Assembly: GCA_018268675.1 (NCBI GenBank)
Contig: JAFDWB010000032.1
Location: 62,001-126,000 of the forward strand
DNA length: 64,000 bases
From: Actinomycetota bacterium
GTDB taxonomy: Bacteria; Actinomycetota; Thermoleophilia; Solirubrobacterales; 70-9
Reading direction: 5' to 3'
Shown here: one piece after another, positions 2,668 to 11,839 of the stretch
Numbering within the stretch: the stretch's first letter is position 1
Layout of the letters: each line of letters opens with the position of its first letter
Notes under the pieces: model-generated
Seen by the model: the letters and a program-made list of their open reading frames with translations, nothing else
Database searches by the model: none
What the model was told of the DNA's origin: nothing
Made by a program: the position numbers and the translations under genes

Positions 2668-2943
2668 TCAGCCGGCCAGCAGCTTCGCCTTCTGGTCGGC
2701 GAACTCCTGCTCGGTGAGCACCCCCTGGTCTTTGAGTTCGCCCAGTTGCTTCAGCTGGTCGAGCATCGAGGCGCCTCCCGCGGCAGGCGCCGGAGCGGCG
2801 GCGGCCGGCGCAGCGGGTTCCTGGGCGGGCGCTTCCTGGGCGGCCCACCTTTTTTCCTGGCGGCGGCGGACCCGGCCGCCAACCGCGGTCGCGGTCCCGG
2901 CGATGGCCGCCGTGCGGCCTATTCCCCTCAACAGTCCCGGCAT
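2668..2943 (-). CDS. Small SHOCT-domain protein
   Basis: A 91-aa protein. The N-terminus (MPGLLRGIGRTAAIAG) is short, basic and Gly/Ala-rich. An Ala/Pro-rich linker follows, then a C-terminal SHOCT domain (LKQLGELKDQGVLTEQEF, ending AKLLAG). SHOCT domains are short helical oligomerisation modules at protein ends; no enzymatic role is expected. The gene lies 12 bp downstream of the DUF6325-like gene and is probably transcribed with it from the box-controlled promoter at 3433-3479. It is one of three SHOCT proteins within 2 kb. Confidence 0.8.
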   Translation of the reverse strand: MPGLLRGIGRTAAIAGTATAVGGRVRRRQEKRWAAQEAPAQEPAAPAAAAPAPAAGGASMLDQLKQLGELKDQGVLTEQEFADQKAKLLAG

Positions 2944-2955
2944 CTTCGACTCCTC

Positions 2956-3396
2956 TCAGACGGTCTCGGCCGCGTCGAGCGCGGCGATCATGGCTTGGAT
3001 GGGAATGCGACCACCGGCGACCAGCTGACCGCCCGAGCGGCGCACCGCCGAGGCGAACGGCCCGGCCCAAGCGTTCTCGAAGACCAGCAATGCCGCCGAG
3101 GTCCCGGGCTCGAGGACGTCGCCCGCGGCGGTGCGATCCTCCTCGTCGAGCAGATCCGAGGATGCCCCGGCGAATACCGCGAGCTCGACGACTTCCCCAC
3201 CGACGCTCTCGATGTCAAGGAAGGTCACGTTGCCTTCCTCGTCCTTGGACAGGAACGCGAGGTCGAGGATCCTGATCAGGCCGCGGTCGACAAGGTCGAT
3301 CAGAAAGGGAGCCACCTCCCCCTTGGGTTGCCGGCCGGGCCACTCGACCAGGAGATAGTCGATCGGTCCCATCTCCTCGATGTCGTCGATGCTCAT
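2956..3396 (-). CDS. DUF6325-like small alpha/beta protein
   Basis: A 146-aa protein with the layout of the family I know as DUF6325 (related to DUF1269): MGPIDYLLVEWPG, then LVDRGLIRILDLAFLSKDEEG, LEPGTSAALLVFENAWAGPF, and a final helix ending MIAALDAAETV. No membrane segment or catalytic motif is seen. Family members occur next to SHOCT and stress proteins in actinobacteria; function is unknown. The gene at 3764-4240 encodes a distant paralogue. It is first gene of a two-gene operon whose promoter carries the 21-bp box. Confidence 0.78.
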   Translation of the reverse strand: MSIDDIEEMGPIDYLLVEWPGRQPKGEVAPFLIDLVDRGLIRILDLAFLSKDEEGNVTFLDIESVGGEVVELAVFAGASSDLLDEEDRTAAGDVLEPGTSAALLVFENAWAGPFASAVRRSGGQLVAGGRIPIQAMIAALDAAETV

Positions 3397-3432: not shown

Positions 3433-3479
3433 ACGTTATGCCCCCAGGCCGGGCGTCGCATCACCCCGATCGAATGATG
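3433..3479 (-). promoter_or_regulatory. Box-controlled promoter A (21-bp box plus -10)
   Basis: Read leftward, the box at 3479-3459 is CATCATTC-GATCG-GGGTGATG, and a TAACGT -10 hexamer follows at 3438-3433 after exactly 20 bp. The geometry matches promoters B to E. The box would cover the -35 region, as expected for a class II activator. The start codon served is at 3396, 36 bp downstream. The box could also affect the rightward gene at 3547, but no TAnnnT is found at the matching distance on that side. Confidence 0.7.
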
Positions 3480-3546
3480 CATCGCCCTCCCAGGTCCGCT
3501 TGGATCGATGCCAGGGCCCGATCCAACGGAGAGGAGGAGAGAGGTC

Positions 3547-3771
3547 TTGCGAAGATCGAGGCGGCTGTCGCCCACCTGGATGCTGGAGGCAAGCGGAAGC
3601 GCGGGCCGTCAGGGCTGTCCGCCACCGGCGCTACCACGGGCCCCACGGATGTGCCTCGACCGCGCGGAGGCGCGGATCGAGGCGCTGGCCAAGCTGAAGG
3701 CGCTGTTCGACTCCGGCGTGCTGACCCGACAGCAGTTCGTCGACGAGCGTGAGCGACTGCTTGATGGATGA
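3547..3771 (+). CDS. Short SHOCT-domain protein (start uncertain)
   Basis: The C-terminal half is a clear SHOCT domain (EALAKLKALFDSGVLTRQQF, ending RERLLDG). The TTG at 3547 is chosen because a long purine-rich ribosome site (GGAGAGGAGGAGAGAGG) lies just before it. The stretch between is Arg- and Pro-rich and low in complexity, so the N-terminal part may be misread, or a frameshift may have replaced the original sequence. A minimal product could begin at a Met near 3649. It overlaps the next gene (ATGGATGA). Confidence 0.45.
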   Translation: MRRSRRLSPTWMLEASGSAGRQGCPPPALPRAPRMCLDRAEARIEALAKLKALFDSGVLTRQQFVDERERLLDG

Positions 3772-4240
3772 CCGCTGGGGTACGAAGGGCCCGGTCCAGG
3801 TGCTCCTCATCGGGATCGACCGCTCCGGCTCCGAGGAGATGATCGCGGCCGAGCTCCAGGACCTCGGGACCCAGACGGCGATCCGGGCCGTGGACCTGCT
3901 GCGGGTCCGGCGAAGCCTGGACGGCGAGGTGCGCAGGTTGGCGCCGACCGACCCCGGCGGACACTCCGGTCGCCTGATCGAGGCTCTGCTCTACGAGGCG
4001 GACGCACCCACCTCGGAGCGGCGGGCGAATCCGCTCGCCGCCGAGCCCGAAGAGACCCGCTGGAGCCTGGCCGAGCGGATCCCCCGCGGCTCTGCCGTCG
4101 CGATCCTCCTGATCGAGCACCGCTGGGCGATCCCGCTGCGCGAAGCCGCCGGCCAGCTCGGGGCGGAGATCTTCGGCGACGCCTGGATCCACCCGCGCGA
4201 TCTCGAGCTGGCGATCCGCCAGGCCCGGTCGGTCAGTTGA
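3764..4240 (+). CDS. DUF6325/DUF1269-like protein
   Basis: A 158-aa protein with the same plan as the gene at 2956-3396: VQVLLIGIDRSGSEE, LGTQTAIRAVDLLRV, then IPRGSAVAILLIEHRWAIPL and AEIFGDAWIHPRDLELAI. It has no membrane helix or known active site. The ATG at 3764 is preferred over an in-frame GTG at 3749 because it overlaps the stop of the SHOCT gene, implying coupled translation. With the upstream SHOCT gene it mirrors the opposite-strand SHOCT/DUF6325 pair, suggesting the pair acts as a unit. Function is unknown. Confidence 0.7.
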   Translation: MDDRWGTKGPVQVLLIGIDRSGSEEMIAAELQDLGTQTAIRAVDLLRVRRSLDGEVRRLAPTDPGGHSGRLIEALLYEADAPTSERRANPLAAEPEETRWSLAERIPRGSAVAILLIEHRWAIPLREAAGQLGAEIFGDAWIHPRDLELAIRQARSVS

Positions 4241-4270
4241 GCTCGTTGCGGCGAAGGAAGCGGGCAGGCC

Positions 4271-4663
4271 TCAGGCCAACAGCTTCGCCTTGGCACGCTC
4301 GAACTCCTCGCTCGAGATCGCACCCTTGTCCTTCAGCTCGGCGAGCTTGCCGAGCTCGTCGGCCGGCGAGGCTGCATGGGCCTGTTCGCGAACGTAGCCG
4401 TCGAACTGCTTTTTGGCGTCCGCCTGCTCTTTGATCGTCCGTTCCCTCATCCCGTTCCCGCGCACGATCAGGTAGATCAGGACCCCGAGGAAGGGCAGAA
4501 AGACGAGGAAGAAGACCCAGACCGCCTTGACGACCCCGGAGAGCTCATGGTCGCGGAAGAGGTCGGAGAGCACCGAGATCAGGATCCAGATCCAGGCGAA
4601 GAGGAGGAAGAACTCGAAGACCAGAAGGAGGCCTTCCCCGAAGTTCACGTCGGCAAGCACCAT
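4271..4663 (-). CDS. Membrane protein with PLDc_N helices and SHOCT domain
   Basis: A 130-aa protein. Two hydrophobic helices (about residues 10-34, LLLVFEFFLLFAWIWILISV, and 46-67) form a PLDc_N-type membrane hairpin; ELSGVVKAVWVFFLVFLPFL and the IYLIVRG edge are typical. A charged linker leads to a C-terminal SHOCT domain (LGKLAELKDKGAISSEEF). PLDc_N-SHOCT proteins are common small inner-membrane proteins of unknown function in actinobacteria. The gene starts 3 bp after the stop of the four-helix protein gene and shares its promoter B. Confidence 0.85.
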   Translation of the reverse strand: MVLADVNFGEGLLLVFEFFLLFAWIWILISVLSDLFRDHELSGVVKAVWVFFLVFLPFLGVLIYLIVRGNGMRERTIKEQADAKKQFDGYVREQAHAASPADELGKLAELKDKGAISSEEFERAKAKLLA

Positions 4664-4666
4664 CGG

Positions 4667-5080
4667 TCAGCCCTCCTGCCAGTTCGTGCAGAGTTGGTAG
4701 ATGAGCACGGTGTCGAGAGCGATCATCAGCAGTGCCCAGAGCGGCGCCGCCGGGAACCAGACGACCTGCATCACCGCGTTCACCCCGAGCAGGAACACCC
4801 CGGTCCAACGCGCGGCCGTGTTGCCGACCAACAGGCCGAGGCCGGTCAGCCCGATCAGGGCGCCGAGCGCGAGCTGGACCCAGCCCCAGGTGCTGATGTC
4901 GAGGACGAGCGCCCCGTGACCGCCGACGACGACGATTTCGTCGTTGAGGATCGCGGCGAGGCCCCAGATCGCGTCGAGCGAGCCGATGATCAACATCATC
5001 ACGCCGGCGAAGACGATCCACGTGCTCTTCCTGTCGCCCCCCGGCGGCGCTTCCCGCCCAAGCTGTTGTCCGGCCTCCAT
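4667..5080 (-). CDS. Four-helix membrane protein (DUF7144-like)
   Basis: A 137-aa integral membrane protein with four predicted helices: WIVFAGVMMLIIGSLDAIWG, a segment around GWVQLALGALIGLTGLGLLV, TGVFLLGVNAVMQV and ALLMIALDTVLIYQL. It resembles the family recorded as DUF7144 (name from memory). The ATG at 5080 is chosen because of the near-perfect ribosome site AAAGGAGAGCAG; an upstream in-frame Met at 5152 would place the start inside the regulatory box. First gene of an operon with the PLDc_N-SHOCT gene. Function is unknown; the regulon context suggests an envelope or stress role. Confidence 0.82.
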   Translation of the reverse strand: MEAGQQLGREAPPGGDRKSTWIVFAGVMMLIIGSLDAIWGLAAILNDEIVVVGGHGALVLDISTWGWVQLALGALIGLTGLGLLVGNTAARWTGVFLLGVNAVMQVVWFPAAPLWALLMIALDTVLIYQLCTNWQEG

Positions 5081-5120
5081 CTGCTCTCCTTTGGTGATCC
5101 GTCGACGGTTCTCGGCGCCG

Positions 5121-5167
5121 AAGATAGGAGCGCGATCTTCGCCTCGCATCATCCCGATCGGGTGATC
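5121..5167 (-). promoter_or_regulatory. Box-controlled promoter B (21-bp box plus -10)
   Basis: Read leftward, the box at 5167-5147 is GATCACCC-GATCG-GGATGATG, and the -10 hexamer TATCTT lies at 5126-5121 after exactly 20 bp. It serves the membrane-protein operon starting at 5080. The box also lies 89 bp upstream of the LAL regulator start, but rightward no hexamer sits at the 20-bp distance. The nearest candidate is TAGAGT at 5210, so any effect on the regulator gene would use a different geometry. Confidence 0.72.
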
Positions 5168-5255
5168 GCCGAAACGCGGATCCCGCCGACCGCTTTCCGG
5201 GTTACTGGATAGAGTTCCTTTACCGATCGGCGGTCACCTCCGGGGCTGCGAAGAC

Positions 5256-7544
5256 ATGGACAGCGGAAACCAGGGAGTGCCGACCACCAGACCTGTCGCG
5301 GGCATCGACCTGCGCGGGCCTGGGCGCGAGTCGCTGGTCGAGCGCGAGCGCCTCGGGGACCGGCTGCGTGCCGTGGAAACGCCGCTGGTCCTGCTCCATG
5401 CACCGGCCGGGTACGGCAAGTCGGTCGTCCTCGCCCAGTGGGCGCGCGACGACCCGCGGCCGTTCGCGTCGGTGACGCTCACCGCCGCCCACAACGACCC
5501 GGCGGTCCTCCTCGCCTCGCTGATCGACGCGGTGGAGCCGATCGAGCCCCTGCCGGAGATCGTGGTCGACACGATCAGCTCCTCGCAACCGAACCTCGAC
5601 ATCGCGGTGCCGCGGCTCGAAGCCGCCTTGCGGACGCGGCGGACGGACTCGGTGCTGGTGCTCGACGAGCTCGAGCACCTCCACTCCGAGGAAAGCCTGC
5701 GGCTTCTCGAGGCCCTGGTCAACGGCGCCGGCGCCGGCGCCACCGTGGCGATGGCGACGCGCCGCACGCCGCAGATCCATGTCACCCGCCTTCAGGCCGC
5801 CCACCGCCTCACCGTGCTCGAGACCGCGGACCTGGTGATGACGCCGCGCGAGGCCAGGGCCCTGCTGGAGAAGGCCGGACTGCGGACCGGGGCGCGGGAA
5901 CTCGACACGATCCTGAGCAAGACCGAGGGCTGGCCGGTGGCCCTTTACCTGGCGGCGCTCAGCCGCCGCTCCGGCCCCGCACAGTCTCTCCCCGACGCCG
6001 GGTTCGGCGGCGAAGAGCGCAACCTGGTCGACTACATGCGCGAGGAGTTCCTCGCCGCCGCCCCGCCCGAGGACGTCGAGTTCCTGCTGCGCGTCGCGCT
6101 GCTCGACCGCCTTTGCGGCGCGCTCTGCGACGCTGTCGTGGAGGGCGTCGGCTCGGGGTCGCGGCTGGCCGGGCTGGCCCGCCAGAACATGCTGCTGATC
6201 CCGCTCGACGGGCGCGACGAATGGTTCCGCCTGCACTCGCTCTTCGCCGAGATGCTGCGCGGCGAGCTCCGCCGCCGCCACAGCGGTGAGATCGCGACAC
6301 TGAACGGCCGTGCGTCGGGCTGGTGGGAGGCCACGGGCGACCAGCCACGGGCGATCCATTTCGCGATCGAGGCGGGCGACATCCCCCGCGCCGGGCGGCT
6401 GATCTGGGAAGCGGTGCCGGCCTTCAACACCACCGGCCGTTACGCGTCGGTCAAAGCCTGGATCGAGCAGATCGGGCTCGAGCAGGCGTCCGGCGATCCC
6501 CACCTGAGCCTCACCGTCGCCCACGGGCTCCTGGCGGAAGGCGACGGCGCGGGCGCCGCCTACTGGGCGGAGGTCGCACGGCCTCCGATCGAGGTCGGGG
6601 GCGCCGGCGCCCCCGACCTGCCGGCGGGCCTCGCGATGATCGACGCCTCACTGGCGCGCGGCGGCTCGGCGACGATGGCGGCGGCCGCGGCCCGCGCGAC
6701 CGCCTCGCTCGACGGTGACAGCCCCTGGGCCTCGATGGCCGATCTGATTGCCGGCCTCGCGGCCCACTTCAGCGGCGACGTCGGGGGCGCCCGCGAGCGC
6801 CTGTCCGACTCGGCCCGTCGGGCCGCCGTCTGGAACGTGCCGCTGATCCAAGTCCTCGCCCTGGCCCAGTTGGCACTGCTGGCGATGGCCGAGGGAGATC
6901 GGCCGAGCGCGAGGATCCTCGCCTCCCAGGCGCGGGCTCAGATCGACCGCTCCGGACTCATCGCGAGGCCGTCGATCGCGCTGGCCGTCGCTGTCTCGGC
7001 CTACGTGAACGCGGTCGAACACCGTCGCCGAGAGGCGGCGGACGATCTCGAGGTCGGCCGCGCGCTGCTCGCGCGGCTTAAGGATTTCGGGCAGTGGTAT
7101 GAAATCGAGACCGCCGCCGCCCTGGCCGCGGCGGCGGTCGGGATCGGCAACGGCGGCGCGGCCGAGCACCTCGTCGCGCTGGCCCGCGCGCGCTTCGACG
7201 ACCTTCCCGACGCGCCGACCTTGGAGGCATGGGTGCTCGAGATCGAAGCGAGCCTCGGGTCGCTCTCGGACGACGCGCTCGCCGAGCTGACGCCGGCGGA
7301 GCTGCGTGTTCTCACCCTGCTCCAGAGTCATCTTTCCTACCCCCAGATCGCCGCCCGCCTCGCGGTATCCCCGAATACGGTGAAGACCCAGGTCCGCTCC
7401 GTCTTCGGGAAGCTCGGCGTCTCCTCGCGGTACGAGGCGGTGGAGCTCTGCCGCAGCCTCGGCTTCCTCCCCGAGGATGACCGGGACGCCAGCCCGACGT
7501 CATCGCCCCGTCGGGGTGATTCCACTCCCCTGCGACGCCGGTAG
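5256..7544 (+). CDS. LAL-type LuxR family transcriptional regulator (MalT-like STAND ATPase)
   Basis: A 762-aa regulator. The N-terminal NTPase has a Walker A loop in APAGYGKSVV (about residue 48) and a Walker B strand LVLDELEHL (about 131). A long helical-repeat middle, typical of MalT sensor arms, is followed by a C-terminal LuxR/GerE helix-turn-helix (about 678-740: LTPAELRVLTLL, YPQIAARLAVSPNTVKTQV, FGKLGVSSRYEAV). LAL proteins bind a ligand, hydrolyse or hold ATP, oligomerise and activate transcription. It sits in the middle of five promoters carrying the same 21-bp palindrome and is the obvious candidate to bind it, though this is inferred from position only. The C-terminal end of the gene overlaps box E. 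Confidence 0.9.
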   Translation: MDSGNQGVPTTRPVAGIDLRGPGRESLVERERLGDRLRAVETPLVLLHAPAGYGKSVVLAQWARDDPRPFASVTLTAAHNDPAVLLASLIDAVEPIEPLPEIVVDTISSSQPNLDIAVPRLEAALRTRRTDSVLVLDELEHLHSEESLRLLEALVNGAGAGATVAMATRRTPQIHVTRLQAAHRLTVLETADLVMTPREARALLEKAGLRTGARELDTILSKTEGWPVALYLAALSRRSGPAQSLPDAGFGGEERNLVDYMREEFLAAAPPEDVEFLLRVALLDRLCGALCDAVVEGVGSGSRLAGLARQNMLLIPLDGRDEWFRLHSLFAEMLRGELRRRHSGEIATLNGRASGWWEATGDQPRAIHFAIEAGDIPRAGRLIWEAVPAFNTTGRYASVKAWIEQIGLEQASGDPHLSLTVAHGLLAEGDGAGAAYWAEVARPPIEVGGAGAPDLPAGLAMIDASLARGGSATMAAAAARATASLDGDSPWASMADLIAGLAAHFSGDVGGARERLSDSARRAAVWNVPLIQVLALAQLALLAMAEGDRPSARILASQARAQIDRSGLIARPSIALAVAVSAYVNAVEHRRREAADDLEVGRALLARLKDFGQWYEIETAAALAAAAVGIGNGGAAEHLVALARARFDDLPDAPTLEAWVLEIEASLGSLSDDALAELTPAELRVLTLLQSHLSYPQIAARLAVSPNTVKTQVRSVFGKLGVSSRYEAVELCRSLGFLPEDDRDASPTSSPRRGDSTPLRRR

Positions 7545-7547
7545 CCT
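7501..7547 (+). promoter_or_regulatory. Box-controlled promoter E (21-bp box plus -10)
   Basis: The box at 7501-7521 reads CATCGCCC-CGTCG-GGGTGATT, followed after exactly 20 bp by TAGCCT at 7542-7547. The box overlaps the last codons of the LAL regulator gene. It serves the SpoIIAA-like gene starting at 7618. Confidence 0.68.
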
Positions 7548-7617
7548 CGGGCGTTTAGAGGAACTACAGACCGGAAACGACCCGCCCGCGCTCGCGGCGG
7601 AATGACGGAGGAAATTC

Positions 7618-7983
7618 ATGCTGCGCAGAATCGAGGACATGCCACCCGGGACGTTGGGCTTCGACGCGGTCGGGGAGGTGGAGGACGACGACTGGGAGGA
7701 GGTCGTCGAACCCGCCCTGCGGGAGATGATCGCCACCGGCCGCAAGCTCCGGCTGCTCTACCGGATCGGGCCTCGGGCGGGCGAGATCGAGGGGGACGCG
7801 GTGGGCGCCGACGCCCGCTTCAGGGCCCGTCACCTCGGTGACTTCGAGCGCCTCGCGGTGGTCGGCGACGAGGACTGGATGCGCCCCGCCCTCGCGGGCC
7901 TCTCCTTCCTCCTCCCCGGCCGGGCGAAGGCCTTCCGCAACTCCGAGCTGGCCGCGGCGAAGGATTGGCTGGCCGCCGAGTAG
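7618..7983 (+). CDS. SpoIIAA-like (STAS-related) protein
   Basis: A 121-aa protein of the SpoIIAA-like family (PF11964). Its opening MLRRIEDMPPGTLGFDAVGE, KLRLLYRIGP, the HLGDFERLAVVGDEDWMR segment and the end AKAFRNSELAAAKDWLAAE fit family members of about 120 aa. These have an alpha/beta fold related to anti-anti-sigma STAS domains but usually lack the phosphorylated Ser; roles in membrane association or stress signalling are suggested, not proven. It is monocistronic behind promoter E. A SulP transporter with a STAS domain lies in the same regulon. Confidence 0.82.
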   Translation: MLRRIEDMPPGTLGFDAVGEVEDDDWEEVVEPALREMIATGRKLRLLYRIGPRAGEIEGDAVGADARFRARHLGDFERLAVVGDEDWMRPALAGLSFLLPGRAKAFRNSELAAAKDWLAAE

Positions 7984-7997
7984 AGCTCGATCGGTCG

Positions 7998-8044
7998 CGT
8001 CACTCGATCGGGATGATGCGCCTGATCGAGGTCCGACCTAGCCT
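7998..8044 (+). promoter_or_regulatory. Box-controlled promoter C (21-bp box plus -10)
   Basis: The box at 7998-8018 reads CGTCACTC-GATCG-GGATGATG, followed after exactly 20 bp by TAGCCT at 8039-8044, the same hexamer as promoter E. It serves the amphi-Trp gene starting at 8098. Confidence 0.7.
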
Positions 8045-8097
8045 CCGTCGGCATCTCATCGTCCACCCGGCGCCTGCGCCGACGAAAGGGGGTCTGG

Positions 8098-8325
8098 ATG
8101 CACATCGTCGAGATCGAGACGACGGAGACGGTCGATCGTGAGGGGGCCGCCATCCAGTTGCGGCGCCTCGCCGATCTGCTCTCGGGTGAAAATGAGACGA
8201 TCGGCTTCGAGCGGAACGGGATGGAGTTCTCGATCGCCGTGCCCGACCAGATGCAACTGAAGGTCGAGCTCGATATCAGCGCCGACGAGCGAGCGGTCGA
8301 GCTCGAGATCGAGCTGAAGTGGTGA
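8098..8325 (+). CDS. Amphi-Trp domain protein
   Basis: A 75-aa protein of the amphi-Trp family (TIGR04354): REGAAIQLRRLADLLS, then alternating hydrophobic strands (FSIAVPDQMQLKVELDIS) and a conserved C-terminal VELEIELKW with the terminal Trp after a charged amphipathic strand. Family function is unknown; members are common in archaea and actinobacteria, often near stress genes. A GGGGGT-type site precedes the ATG. Promoter C lies 53 bp upstream, and the gene faces the SulP gene end on. Confidence 0.85.
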   Translation: MHIVEIETTETVDREGAAIQLRRLADLLSGENETIGFERNGMEFSIAVPDQMQLKVELDISADERAVELEIELKW

Positions 8326-8334
8326 GGCGCGAGC

Positions 8335-10047
8335 TCAGCCGGGAGCCGCAAGTGCCGCTTTGACGGCCCGATCGACGTTCCCGTGCAGATGGTCGCGCCC
8401 GATCCGCTCGACCAACCCTTGGGCCTCCAGTACGGTCCGGACCGGTGCCTTCACACGGGCAAGGCGCAGGTCGACCCCGTCCATCCTCGTCAGCTCCTCG
8501 ATCTCGCTCAGCTTCGCCGCCCCCTGCGAGTCGATGAAGGTCACGGCCTCGAGATCGAGCACGACGACCCGCAGCTTCGGGTCGGCCTCGTCGCTCAGCT
8601 CCCGGACCCGATCCTCGAGCGCCTCGGCGGTGGCGAAGAAGAGGCCGCCGTCGAGGCGGATCACGGCGAACCCGGGGAAGGTTTCGTCGTCGGGATTGTC
8701 GGCCACGTCGCGAAACACCTGCGTGTCGGGCTCGCGTCCGAGAAGGGGGATCGCCGGGCGGGTCGTCACGTAGACGAGCCAGCCCAGAGAGAGGGCGACG
8801 CCGATCACGACGCCCGCGAGCACGCCGGCGGAGAGTACGGCGAGAGCCGCCACCGCGGCCACCCAGAAATCGAATCTGGCGACCCGGCGCAGCCGCTTCA
8901 GCTCCCCTAGATCGATCATCCCGAAGATGACCGCGTCGATGATGATCGCCCCCAGCACCGCCTTCGGCAGGTCCGAGAAGAGCGGCGCCAGCGCGAAGAG
9001 GGTCGCGACCACGACCCCGCCCGTGACCAGTGAGGCGAGCGGGGTGCGCGCTCCCGAGGACTCGTTCAAGGAGCTCGCCGAGAGGCTCGTCGAGACCGGC
9101 ATCCCCTGAAAGAAGCCGGCGCCGACATTCGCCATCCCCTGGGCGACCGACTCTTGGTTCACGTCGATGCGGTAGCGGCGTCGGGCGGCGAAGGCGCGAG
9201 CGTCCCCCGCGGTCTGCGAGAAGCCGATCAGGAGGAGGGCGACGGAGGCGACGGCGACCGAGGAGACGTTGTCGGAGACGACCTGGACGCTCGGCAGCGC
9301 CGGGGTCGGAAGGCCACGCGGAACCGTGCCAACCAGGGCTACGCCGTGGGCACCGAGATCGACCAGGTGGGATGCCAGCAGGCCGCCGACGACCAGGACG
9401 AGCGCACCCGGCGCCCTCGGCCGGAGGAACCGCAGGCCGATGATCAGCGCCAGCGCCGCCAGGCCGACGAGCAGGGTCGCCCAATGGATTTCGCCGAGAC
9501 CGGCGACCCAGGTGCCGAGCTCGTGCCAGGCGGTGTCACCTTCGGCGGAGGTCCCGGTGAGCTTCGGCAGCTCGCCGATCGTGACGCTCACCGCCGAGCC
9601 GGCGAGGAAGCCGGTGACCACGGCCTTCGAGAGGAACTGGGCGATCCAACCCATCCGCAGGGCCGCCAGCAGAAGGAAGAGGGCGCCGGTCACGACGGTG
9701 ATGCCGGCCACCAGCTGGGCGGCTTCCTGCCCGGCGAGTCCGGTGGCGAGCACGGCGCCGCCCGCGACCGCGGCGAGCGAGGAGCTCGGCCCGGTCGAGA
9801 TCTGCCGCGACGTGCAAAAGAGCGCGTAGATGATCGCCCCGGCCGCGGCTGCGTAGAGCCCGTTCTGGATCGGGACCCCGGCGATCCCCGCGTAGCCGAG
9901 GTCCTTCGGCACGATCATCGCGGCCACCGCGACGCCCGCCGCAAGATCGCCGCCGAGCAGGCCGCGGTCGTATCGGGGCAGCCATCGAACGATCGGGACC
10001 AGGCGGCCGAGGGACGGCTGGGTGGGTTCGCGGGGAGTCACCGCCAC
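8335..10047 (-). CDS. SulP-family anion transporter with STAS domain
   Basis: A 570-aa SLC26/SulP transporter. The membrane domain (about residues 25-430) begins LPRYDRGLLGGDLAAGVAVA and shows the family signature GLYAAAAGAIIYALFCTSRQ and STGPSSSLAA, then further helices. A cytoplasmic STAS domain (about 445-560) contains AVIRLDGGLFFATAEALEDR and VVLDLEAVTFIDSQGAAKL. Substrates in the family are sulfate, bicarbonate or dicarboxylates; which applies is unknown. The Ser of FIDSQG is the position phosphorylated in true anti-anti-sigma factors. It starts 6 bp after the coiled-coil gene, whose promoter D it shares. Confidence 0.93.
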   Translation of the reverse strand: MAVTPREPTQPSLGRLVPIVRWLPRYDRGLLGGDLAAGVAVAAMIVPKDLGYAGIAGVPIQNGLYAAAAGAIIYALFCTSRQISTGPSSSLAAVAGGAVLATGLAGQEAAQLVAGITVVTGALFLLLAALRMGWIAQFLSKAVVTGFLAGSAVSVTIGELPKLTGTSAEGDTAWHELGTWVAGLGEIHWATLLVGLAALALIIGLRFLRPRAPGALVLVVGGLLASHLVDLGAHGVALVGTVPRGLPTPALPSVQVVSDNVSSVAVASVALLLIGFSQTAGDARAFAARRRYRIDVNQESVAQGMANVGAGFFQGMPVSTSLSASSLNESSGARTPLASLVTGGVVVATLFALAPLFSDLPKAVLGAIIIDAVIFGMIDLGELKRLRRVARFDFWVAAVAALAVLSAGVLAGVVIGVALSLGWLVYVTTRPAIPLLGREPDTQVFRDVADNPDDETFPGFAVIRLDGGLFFATAEALEDRVRELSDEADPKLRVVVLDLEAVTFIDSQGAAKLSEIEELTRMDGVDLRLARVKAPVRTVLEAQGLVERIGRDHLHGNVDRAVKAALAAPG

Positions 10048-10053
10048 CCGCGA

Positions 10054-10542
10054 TCAGGGTCGCTTGGGACTCGTCTGTTCGACGTTCTTCTCGAGTTTGC
10101 CGAGCCGCTTGTCGAGGGCTTCGACTTCCGCTTCCAGGCCTTCCTGGCTCTTCGCCAGGCCGGCGATGGCTGCTTCGGACTTCGCCCCGGCCGCCGCGGT
10201 CTTCGCGGCTTCTTCTTCCGCCTTCCCCACCCGCTTCTTCACCTGGGCGAGTTCGGCACCACCTTCGGCCACCGCTTCTTCGACTTCCTTCTGGACCTGC
10301 TGGTGATTGGCTTCCGACTGTTCCTTGCCTTCCGCCTGCAGCTTTTCGGCCGCTTCGACCGCCTGGCCGAGCCCGGCCACCTTGGCCATCACGTGGTCAC
10401 TCGCTTCTTCGGCGATCGCCTTCTGATCGACGGTTTCGTTGCTCGCCGAGATCGCCACCCCGAGCGCGCCGATCGAGACCACGGCCAACGCCGCGACCAA
10501 GACCCAGAACCAGGGACGGGTTTCACGGATCTCCATCTGCAT
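10054..10542 (-). CDS. Single-pass membrane protein with long coiled coil
   Basis: A 162-aa protein with one transmembrane helix near the N-terminus (WFWVLVAALAVVSIGALGVA), then a highly charged, heptad-patterned helical region rich in Ala, Glu and Lys (about residues 40-155), ending with EALDKRLGKLEKNVEQ. It is probably anchored with the coiled coil outside or inside the membrane; topology is not decidable. No known domain was recognised. It is the first gene of an operon with the SulP transporter, so it may scaffold or regulate that transporter (inference). Confidence 0.75.
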   Translation of the reverse strand: MQMEIRETRPWFWVLVAALAVVSIGALGVAISASNETVDQKAIAEEASDHVMAKVAGLGQAVEAAEKLQAEGKEQSEANHQQVQKEVEEAVAEGGAELAQVKKRVGKAEEEAAKTAAAGAKSEAAIAGLAKSQEGLEAEVEALDKRLGKLEKNVEQTSPKRP

Positions 10543-10584
10543 GCCTCCAGGGTCGGGCGTCGGTCGGCGATGAACTGCTCCGGG

Positions 10585-10631
10585 ACGCTAGGCCCGACGA
10601 CACCCGCCCACATCGTCCCGATGGGGTGATG
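10585..10631 (-). promoter_or_regulatory. Box-controlled promoter D (21-bp box plus -10)
   Basis: Read leftward, the box at 10631-10611 is CATCACCC-CATCG-GGACGATG, followed after exactly 20 bp by TAGCGT at 10590-10585. It serves the coiled-coil and SulP operon starting at 10542. Confidence 0.7.
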
Positions 10632-10734: not shown

Positions 10735-11349
10735 TCAACCGCCCAGGCGGCGCGCTCTCTGGATATACGCCTCCAACGAGGTGTGGGGCGCCCTGCGTTG
10801 TCGTACGCGATCCACGATCCCCTGGGCAGGGAAGCCGACAGCGATTTCGGTGGCGGGGATCGACGAGGCGAGGACCGGCCGAACGTTCCAGGACAACGCG
10901 ATGCGGAGCCCGAAGATCGTGAGATTGGTCCCTCCCGGCGGTGCGGCGGATGGGGAGAGAACGCCCTGGAAGCCTGCCGCGCGTAGGCGCCGACCCTCGG
11001 CCTGACACCGAGAGTAGTCCTCGTCGACGAGTGCGTCCGGAGGGAATCCAGCCGCCGCGGCGCGCTCGAAGGTGCGGTAGTCGGCCAGACGCTTCGGGTG
11101 TACCTGGGCGGCCCACATCGGCATCCTGATCAGCGCGACCTCGGGCTCGGAGGAGATCTCGGCCGTCCTGATCAACTCCGCCCAGGCGCCCTCGACCGTC
11201 GTGCTCAGGTACTGCGTCGGCTCGTCGCCGGCGCTGTGCCAACGGCCGGATTCGCTGTTCGGCCGCGCCCAGAACGGCGTGTCGTAGTTGGAGTAGCGAA
11301 ACGCTACGTCGTCGAATTCGACCGGTTCGGGGTTCGGATCAGGAGCCAT
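10735..11349 (-). CDS. RES-domain toxin
   Basis: A 204-aa protein of the RES family, toxins with an ADP-ribosyltransferase-like fold that deplete NAD+. Typical segments are an N-terminal FRYSNYDTPFWARPNSESGR with RWH, then PTQYLSTTVEGAWAELIR (the conserved Arg, Tyr/Ser and Glu region), and a later LRAAGFQGVLSPSAA. The partner Xre/ParS-type antitoxin gene is immediately upstream, overlapping by 11 bp, the usual order for this class. The C-terminal tail (LEAYIQRARRLGG) is slightly longer than the core fold. Confidence 0.85.
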   Translation of the reverse strand: MAPDPNPEPVEFDDVAFRYSNYDTPFWARPNSESGRWHSAGDEPTQYLSTTVEGAWAELIRTAEISSEPEVALIRMPMWAAQVHPKRLADYRTFERAAAAGFPPDALVDEDYSRCQAEGRRLRAAGFQGVLSPSAAPPGGTNLTIFGLRIALSWNVRPVLASSIPATEIAVGFPAQGIVDRVRQRRAPHTSLEAYIQRARRLGG

Positions 11350-11839
11350 GCTGCGCGCGTCCCTGGCGCGCAGCGACCATCAGGCTGCGCTCGTACTCCG
11401 GGTCCCCCAACACATCGATCGGGGGCTTGCCGTCGAGGTCGCGCCGCGGGCGGTAGAACCAGGCGATGACGCCGGCCGGCGTCCAAGCCCGCCACAGCAG
11501 AGCGACCAGGCGAGAGACCAGCCGAAGCCGATCGGAAGGCCTCGAGCCACCTTTCGCCAACCTCTGCATCTGTCGCTCTCCGACCCCCAAAAGCCCGGAC
11601 AGTTCCTTCCGCGAAACCCCGGGAAGCTGCGTCGAAAGGCCCTCGAGAAGCTCGCCCGCGTCCTCCTCACCTCCCTTGGCCTGACCGTCCAACGCGTCCC
11701 GGACGATGTGCCGCACCGCTTCGGCGTGAATCGCAAAACTGTGCCTGAGCAGCTGGCCCGGGAGAAGGAGTGCCATCAGCAGGCCGCTTGGGCCCGCGAT
11801 CGGACCCGTCCACGGCAACCCGCTTCGGCTGCAAGGCAC
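11339..11839 (-). CDS. Xre/MbcA/ParS-type antitoxin
   Basis: A 166-aa antitoxin for the RES toxin. The central helix-turn-helix reads GVSRKELSGLLGVGERQMQR, and the C-terminal toxin-binding domain (DUF2384-like) reads VALLWRAWTPAGVIAWFYRP with IDVLGDPEYERSLM. The first 20 residues from the GTG at 11839 are atypical, so the real start may be the in-frame ATG at 11776. It would neutralise the toxin and repress its own promoter in the 124-bp space before the RTX gene. Confidence 0.82.
   Translation of the reverse strand: MPCSRSGLPWTGPIAGPSGLLMALLLPGQLLRHSFAIHAEAVRHIVRDALDGQAKGGEEDAGELLEGLSTQLPGVSRKELSGLLGVGERQMQRLAKGGSRPSDRLRLVSRLVALLWRAWTPAGVIAWFYRPRRDLDGKPPIDVLGDPEYERSLMVAARQGRAQHGS

What the first reader, a model, noticed from the sequence alone, without database searches (positions are those of the whole stretch)
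3433..10631. A 21-bp palindromic box exactly 20 bp upstream of a TAnnnT -10 at five promoters of one gene island
Boxes at 3459-3479, 5147-5167, 7501-7521, 7998-8018 and 10611-10631 share CATCACCC-N5-GGGTGATG. Read in the direction of transcription, each is followed after exactly 20 bp by TAACGT, TATCTT, TAGCCT, TAGCCT and TAGCGT respectively. The genes served encode SHOCT, DUF6325-like, DUF7144-like, SpoIIAA-like and amphi-Trp proteins, plus a coiled-coil/SulP operon. Identical spacing at five places on both strands is hard to explain by chance and implies an activator bound over the -35 region. I know of no description of this box.
Basis: seen in the sequence. Interest (0 to 1): 0.88.

Follow-up and report, generated by a model that had tools for sequence, protein, structure and literature searches.

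The report
MalT-type activator box regulon, actinobacterial island
Five promoters in a 7-kb gene island share a palindromic DNA box at a fixed distance from the start site, almost certainly bound by the MalT-type regulator encoded in the middle of the island; the same box was described in Actinoplanes in 2020, but here it marks a much wider actinobacterial regulon built around uncharacterised protein families.

Summary
All five boxes exist, and each is followed after exactly 20 bp by TAnnnT pointing at the gene. These five are the only such promoters in the 4.2-Mb genome.

In relatives the box lies beside orthologues of that regulator: 14 of 28 hits within 5 kb, against 0.26% of genome length. 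It keeps the 20-bp spacing: 26 of 60 boxes, 0.06 expected. It precedes the same families: DUF7144, DUF6325-SHOCT, DUF1269, SulP, sulfatase.

The box is not undescribed. Droste et al. 2020 (PMC7567727) reported TCATCC-N5-GGATGA upstream of 17 mapped start sites in Actinoplanes. Its 3' end lies 34.4 ± 1.0 nt from the start site, and MalT deletion and overexpression showed activation. The geometry predicted here is 34-35 nt.

Verdict: a new member of a known kind, a MalT-type class-II-activated regulon, far from Micromonosporaceae and with mostly different targets. Binding, start sites and inducer are untested. An acid/energy-stress role is my speculation.

The parts
5256..7544 (+). LAL/MalT-like transcriptional regulator (762 aa): N-terminal P-loop NTPase, C-terminal LuxR/GerE helix-turn-helix; proposed activator
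   Evidence: Pfam GerE 1.1e-9, AAA_22 1.3e-8; profile of its orthologues matches E. coli MalT structure 8bob at 3.8e-56; NCBIfam MalT model 214 bits, below the equivalog cut-off 537
3459..3479 (-). box 1, read CATCATTCGATCGGGGTGATG
3433..3438 (-). -10 element TAACGT, 20 bp from box 1
2956..3396 (-). DUF6325 protein, first gene after box 1
   Evidence: PF19850 3.7e-12; same family after a box in about 15 loci
2668..2943 (-). SHOCT protein, second gene after box 1
   Evidence: PF09851 5.2e-9; follows DUF6325 in most relatives
5147..5167 (-). box 2, read GATCACCCGATCGGGATGATG
5121..5126 (-). -10 element TATCTT, 20 bp from box 2
4667..5080 (-). DUF7144 membrane protein; start most likely ATG at 5080 because the ORF's first ATG (5152) lies inside the box
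   Evidence: PF23636 7.8e-33; same family after a box in about 16 loci
4271..4663 (-). PLDc_N + SHOCT membrane protein, second gene after box 2
   Evidence: PF13396 3.1e-8, PF09851 1.2e-9
7501..7521 (+). box 3, CATCGCCCCGTCGGGGTGATT, inside the 3' end of the regulator gene
7542..7547 (+). -10 element TAGCCT, 20 bp from box 3; its TAG is the regulator's stop codon
7618..7983 (+). SpoIIAA-like protein
   Evidence: PF11964 9.4e-20
7998..8018 (+). box 4, CGTCACTCGATCGGGATGATG
8039..8044 (+). -10 element TAGCCT, 20 bp from box 4
8098..8325 (+). amphi-Trp domain protein
   Evidence: PF20068 1.6e-8; TIGR04354
10611..10631 (-). box 5, read CATCACCCCATCGGGACGATG
10585..10590 (-). -10 element TAGCGT, 20 bp from box 5
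10054..10542 (-). coiled-coil-like protein, first gene after box 5, no Pfam family
8335..10047 (-). SulP/STAS anion permease, second gene after box 5
   Evidence: PF00916 1.6e-82; TIGR00815 above cut-off
3764..4240 (+). unnamed protein, relative of DUF6325, conserved next to the regulator in four of the closest relatives; no box of its own

Best explanation
The 21-bp box is the operator of the LAL/MalT-type regulator encoded at 5256-7544. A dimer, or two protomers of an ATP-dependent oligomer, of the regulator binds the two inverted MalT-box-like half sites (TCAYCC and GGRTGA, 11 bp centre to centre). It sits over the -35 region of promoters that have a TAnnnT -10 but no usable -35, and recruits the housekeeping RNA polymerase by direct contact (class-II activation). 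It thereby switches on five transcription units of one local regulon. Shown here: box, spacing, genome-wide exclusivity, linkage to the regulator in relatives, recurrent target families. Inferred: binding by this protein, direction (activation), sigma factor, and an inducer that controls the NTPase switch.
For: (1) Exclusivity: only five such promoters in 4.2 Mb, all within 4.5 kb of the only full-length LAL homologue found in the genome. (2) Linkage: 14 of 28 box-promoters in other genomes of the family lie within 5 kb of an orthologue, against 0.26% of sequence, p ~2e-29. (3) Fixed spacing in 26 orthologue neighbourhoods excluding the window: TAnnnT at +20 in 26 boxes, +19 in 9, +21 in 5, expected 0.06 per offset; again 36/9/14 in 78 partly overlapping loci. 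(4) Conserved order DUF7144 <- box | LAL | box -> DUF6325-SHOCT down to 35% regulator identity. (5) A pattern-only phylum scan lands on the same families: DUF6325-SHOCT, DUF1269-sulfatase, DUF7144, CLC, glutamate decarboxylase. (6) Box presence clusters on the regulator tree (18 changes against 26.7 shuffled, 0 of 500 as low). (7) The half site matches the MalT box GGA[TG]GA, and the same palindrome at the same distance from 17 mapped start sites is MalT-dependent in Actinoplanes.
Against: No binding, footprint or RNA data for this organism or its class were available here. The regulator is below the NCBIfam cut-off for MalT, and its closeness to Actinoplanes ACSP50_3915 was not measured. Some relatives have boxes without an orthologue nearby (for example G022, G028), and 41 of 79 regulators in the tree lack a nearby promoter-box. 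E. coli MalT uses direct repeats, not this palindrome. In Actinoplanes too, the sections read infer direct binding from motif and transcriptome data.
Confidence: 0.88

Rival explanations
1. The box is an operator for a repressor that blocks RNA polymerase at the -35 region, with the LAL protein or another factor as repressor.
For: Position over the -35 is also compatible with steric repression; the LAL protein SCO6993 acts negatively in Streptomyces coelicolor (PMC9628970).
Against: The promoters have no sigma-70-like -35 that would work alone, spacing is rigid to one base in independent genomes, and the same motif at the same position is positively controlled in Actinoplanes.
Confidence: 0.06
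2. The GGRTGATG...TAnnnT pair is the recognition sequence of an alternative sigma factor; the palindrome is incidental.
For: The promoter-proximal half has an extra conserved G (83% at box position 21) that its palindromic counterpart lacks, and spacing is fixed.
Against: The distal half TCAYCC is just as conserved across 58 promoters (box positions 3, 4 and 8 at 98-100%), which a sigma factor does not need; the linked gene is a LAL regulator, not a sigma factor; TAnnnT fits a housekeeping -10.
Confidence: 0.03
3. The box is bound by a different regulator acting in trans; the LAL gene is merely a co-regulated neighbour.
For: Boxes without a nearby LAL exist (L118, L120), and in Kribbella rubisoli (L183) and in L152 the LAL gene itself lies downstream of a box.
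Against: In this genome the five boxes lie within 4.5 kb of the only full-length LAL homologue found; box presence clusters on the regulator tree; the half site matches the MalT box, and the Actinoplanes genetics point to the LAL protein.
Confidence: 0.06

Closest known systems
MalT (ACSP50_3915) regulon / maltose-regulated large genomic region of Actinoplanes sp. SE50/110 (Droste et al. 2020, PMC7567727)
   Same: LuxR-family MalT-like regulator inside its own target region; palindrome TCATCC-N5-GGATGA; 3' end 34.4 ± 1.0 nt from mapped start sites (34-35 predicted here); overlaps -35; many targets membrane-bound or uncharacterised; activation shown there by deletion and overexpression.
   Different: The Actinoplanes region has 51 genes and 17 motif-bearing start sites; here five promoters. 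Targets named in its main text (arginine deiminase operon, Ser/Thr exporter, dipeptidase) are not in this island. The first half site here tolerates TCACCC/TCGCCC. Similarity of the regulator to ACSP50_3915 was not measured.
E. coli / Klebsiella MalT and the MalT box GGA(T/G)GA
   Same: The N-terminal part aligns with MalT structure 8bob (3.8e-56); half site GGATGA is a MalT box; box overlaps -35.
   Different: Enterobacterial sites are direct repeats and serve maltose genes; no maltose gene is in this island; score below the MalT equivalog cut-off.
LuxR / NarL-type activators binding inverted repeats near -42
   Same: GerE-type helix-turn-helix; inverted repeat overlapping the -35 region.
   Different: No autoinducer or receiver domain; large NTPase module; different half-site sequence and spacing. 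(Comparison from general knowledge.)

Membership tests
LAL / MalT-type regulators | N-terminal P-loop NTPase (Walker A) | tested here: met
   AAA_22 hit; APAGYGKS motif with invariant A49 P50 G52 K55 in 18 orthologues; profile aligns to MalT 8bob residues 14-418
LAL / MalT-type regulators | C-terminal LuxR/GerE DNA-binding domain in a protein of 700-900 aa | tested here: met
   PF00196 at 677-730 of 762 aa; S705 N707 T708 V709 K710 invariant
MalT sensu stricto (NCBIfam equivalog NF003420) | score above curated cut-off 537 bits | tested here: not met
   214 bits
MalT sensu stricto (NCBIfam equivalog NF003420) | controls maltose/maltodextrin genes | tested here: not met
   no maltose gene among the box-preceded genes of this genome
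MalT sensu stricto (NCBIfam equivalog NF003420) | maltotriose as inducer | not testable with these tools
   needs biochemistry
Actinobacterial MalT-box regulon (Droste 2020 type) | palindrome TCATCC-N5-GGATGA or close variant | tested here: met
   box 2 matches WTCAYCCN2WN2GGRTGAW exactly, the others with 1-2 mismatches
Actinobacterial MalT-box regulon (Droste 2020 type) | 3' end of motif about 34 nt from the transcription start | tested here: inconclusive
   34-35 nt if the start is 6-7 nt after TAnnnT; start sites not mapped
Actinobacterial MalT-box regulon (Droste 2020 type) | MalT-like regulator encoded within the target region | tested here: met
   5256-7544, between boxes 2 and 3
Actinobacterial MalT-box regulon (Droste 2020 type) | the regulator activates the genes | not testable with these tools
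   needs deletion or expression data

The most novel reading that the evidence does not exclude
The Actinoplanes region and this island are two ends of one phylum-wide actinobacterial regulon, run by LAL regulators with rigid box geometry. Its core is a poorly known set of small proteins (the DUF6325/DUF1269 superfamily, DUF7144, SHOCT), joined to CLC antiporters, glutamate decarboxylase, amino-acid permeases, SulP permeases and sulfatases. It serves acid or energy/envelope stress rather than sugar use.
Probability: 0.3. Interest if true: 0.65.

Novelty: new member of a known kind. Interest (0 to 1): 0.48.

Why it matters
It gives several families of unknown function (DUF6325, DUF7144, DUF1269-like, SHOCT, SpoIIAA-like, amphi-Trp) a shared, testable regulatory context across Actinomycetota. 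It also extends an activator-promoter code worked out in one industrial strain to a class known mostly from metagenomes. The rule of box plus 20 bp plus TAnnnT is specific enough to predict regulon members from sequence alone: the reversed pattern was almost never found in 399 genomes.

Tried and rejected
Chance: rejected. Genome-wide regulon: rejected for this genome; weaker half-box matches elsewhere (2 mismatches) mostly lack TAnnnT, and a 1-mismatch palindrome 12 kb before the window (C25:49779) has no -10 at 20 bp. Other LuxR-type proteins of this genome as binder: nine partial hits, none on the island's contig. Sulfate metabolism as the theme (SulP, sulfatase, formylglycine-generating enzyme): seen in several loci but not in most. 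Literature searches for DUF6325/DUF7144 found no paper; a search for SHOCT plus LuxR gave nothing relevant. No structure prediction was run because it would not have tested the box.
Full report
Observation. The five boxes and their 20-bp distances to TAnnnT are exactly as described. In direction of transcription the promoter-proximal half TCGGGRYGATK is the best conserved among the five. The genome holding the window (4.2 Mb, 95 contigs) has five places with at most one mismatch to TCGGGRTGATG-N20-TAnnnT and an intact TAnnnT: the five in the island. Allowing two mismatches gives about 60 places in all, more than the reversed-pattern control of 7. Most of the extra ones lack an intact TAnnnT, and I take them for coding-sequence background. 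No sigma-70-like -35/-10 pair exists in the island.

The missing piece. Between boxes 2 and 3 lies a 762-aa gene (5256-7544, +) with an N-terminal P-loop NTPase and a C-terminal LuxR/GerE helix-turn-helix. A profile of 18 orthologues matches the solved E. coli MalT structure 8bob at 3.8e-56 over residues 14-418, and LuxR-type DNA-binding domains over its C-terminus. The protein scores 214 bits against the MalT equivalog model (cut-off 537), so it is a MalT-like LAL regulator, not MalT proper. It is the only full-length homologue found in this genome; the other nine hits are partial, mostly over the DNA-binding end.

Box and regulator travel together. In 50 genomes of the same family the pattern occurs in 16, and orthologues of the regulator (E <= 1e-40) in 22. 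Outside the window's genome 14 of 28 box-promoters lie within 5 kb of an orthologue, where 0.26% of the sequence lies (p ~2e-29). In 26 orthologue neighbourhoods (376 kb, window excluded) there are 60 boxes with up to 2 mismatches to WTCAYCC-N5-GGRTGAW, against 4-20 in Markov sequences. TAnnnT starts at +20 in 26, +19 in 9 and +21 in 5, and at any other offset at most twice; 0.06 is expected per offset. In 78 named loci carrying a relative of the regulator (Solirubrobacterales, Conexibacter, Solirubrobacter, Nocardioides, Kribbella, Leifsonia, Microterricola and others) the numbers are 36, 9 and 14. The two sets overlap, because several of the named contigs are the same contigs as in the first set. 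On a tree of 79 regulators, box presence needs 18 changes against 26.7 for shuffled labels, with 0 of 500 shuffles as low. The half of the tree with the window regulator has boxes in 26 of 36, the rest in 12 of 43.

Targets recur. The commonest arrangement is DUF7144 <- box | regulator | box -> DUF6325-SHOCT. First genes after a box fall into DUF7144 (16), DUF6325 (15) and a cluster of 14 that holds DUF1269-like and sulfatase genes. There are also PLDc_N-SHOCT, SpoIIAA-like, MFS, NDH-2-like, DUF1254, CLC, SulP, a pyridoxal-dependent (glutamate-type) decarboxylase and others. A pattern-only scan of 396 phylum genomes (exact motif, regulator not used) hit 13 genomes, against 1 control hit. Next to these boxes again lie DUF6325-SHOCT, DUF1269-sulfatase, PLDc_N-SHOCT, DUF7144, MFS, CLC and the decarboxylase, with LAL-like pieces in two loci. 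In the class, 65 of 399 genomes have the one-mismatch pattern while the reversed control has about three hits.

What is known. Droste et al. 2020 (PMC7567727) found in Actinoplanes sp. SE50/110 a 51-gene region with the palindrome 5'-TCATCC-5nt-GGATGA-3' before 17 mapped start sites. Its 3' end lies 34.4 ± 1.0 nt from the start and overlaps the -35. The MalT-like regulator encoded inside the region is its activator: deletion lowers 42 of 51 genes, overexpression raises at least 39. The box also occurs in A. missouriensis, Pseudosporangium, Couchioplanes and Krasilnikovia. The authors noted the match to the E. coli MalT box GGA(T/G)GA. In the window the 3' end of GGRTGA is followed by 2+20 nt and the -10 hexamer; with a start 6-7 nt further (usual bacterial geometry) the distance is 34-35 nt.

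Mechanism. I infer ATP- and inducer-dependent binding of two regulator protomers to the inverted half sites, 11 bp apart centre to centre (about one helical turn, same face). The proximal protomer would then touch the sigma subunit at the occupied -35. Across 58 promoters with the 20-bp spacer the outermost proximal base is G in 83%, while its palindromic counterpart is not conserved. This asymmetry fits a proximal half that also contributes to polymerase contact or to the longer MalT decamer. Inducer, oligomeric state and direction of control remain untested here.

Function. Reading CLC, glutamate-type decarboxylase and amino-acid permease targets together with the arginine deiminase operon of Actinoplanes suggests acid or energy stress. 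That is an inference from gene families only. By profile comparison DUF6325, the DUF1269-like targets and the unnamed protein 3764-4240 appear related (E 1e-13, 5e-7, 6e-5), so one small-protein superfamily seems to dominate the regulon.

Verdict.

Noticed in passing
window 7501-7547: Box 3 lies inside the 3' coding end of the regulator gene and the -10 TAGCCT uses the regulator's own TAG stop codon; a box at the 3' end of the regulator gene is also seen in L089, L090 and L091.
   Followed up: partly
window 3764-4240 (+), 2956-3396 (-): An unnamed protein beside the regulator, DUF6325 and DUF1269-like proteins are related by profile comparison, apparently one superfamily.
   Followed up: partly
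L118 9133-10460; L120 9359-10385: DUF7144 and another gene diverge from one or two boxes with no regulator gene between or beside them, suggesting loss or action in trans.
   Followed up: no
L152 4936-8193; L183 5860-8160: In these loci the regulator gene itself lies downstream of a box promoter, so it may activate its own expression there.
   Followed up: no
L101 1-1072; L227; L228; L165 8265-9656: Chloride channel/antiporter and glutamate-type decarboxylase genes adjoin the box in several genomes, a pair reminiscent of acid resistance.
   Followed up: partly
L159, L165 (records titled Bifidobacterium breve MAG TrH-03may19-71): Contigs labelled B. breve carry regulators like those of Solirubrobacterales; probably a mislabelled or contaminated MAG.
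   Followed up: no
window 10735-11776 (-): Two overlapping genes read by eye as a RES-domain protein and an Xre/MbcA-like partner, possibly a toxin-antitoxin pair.
   Followed up: no
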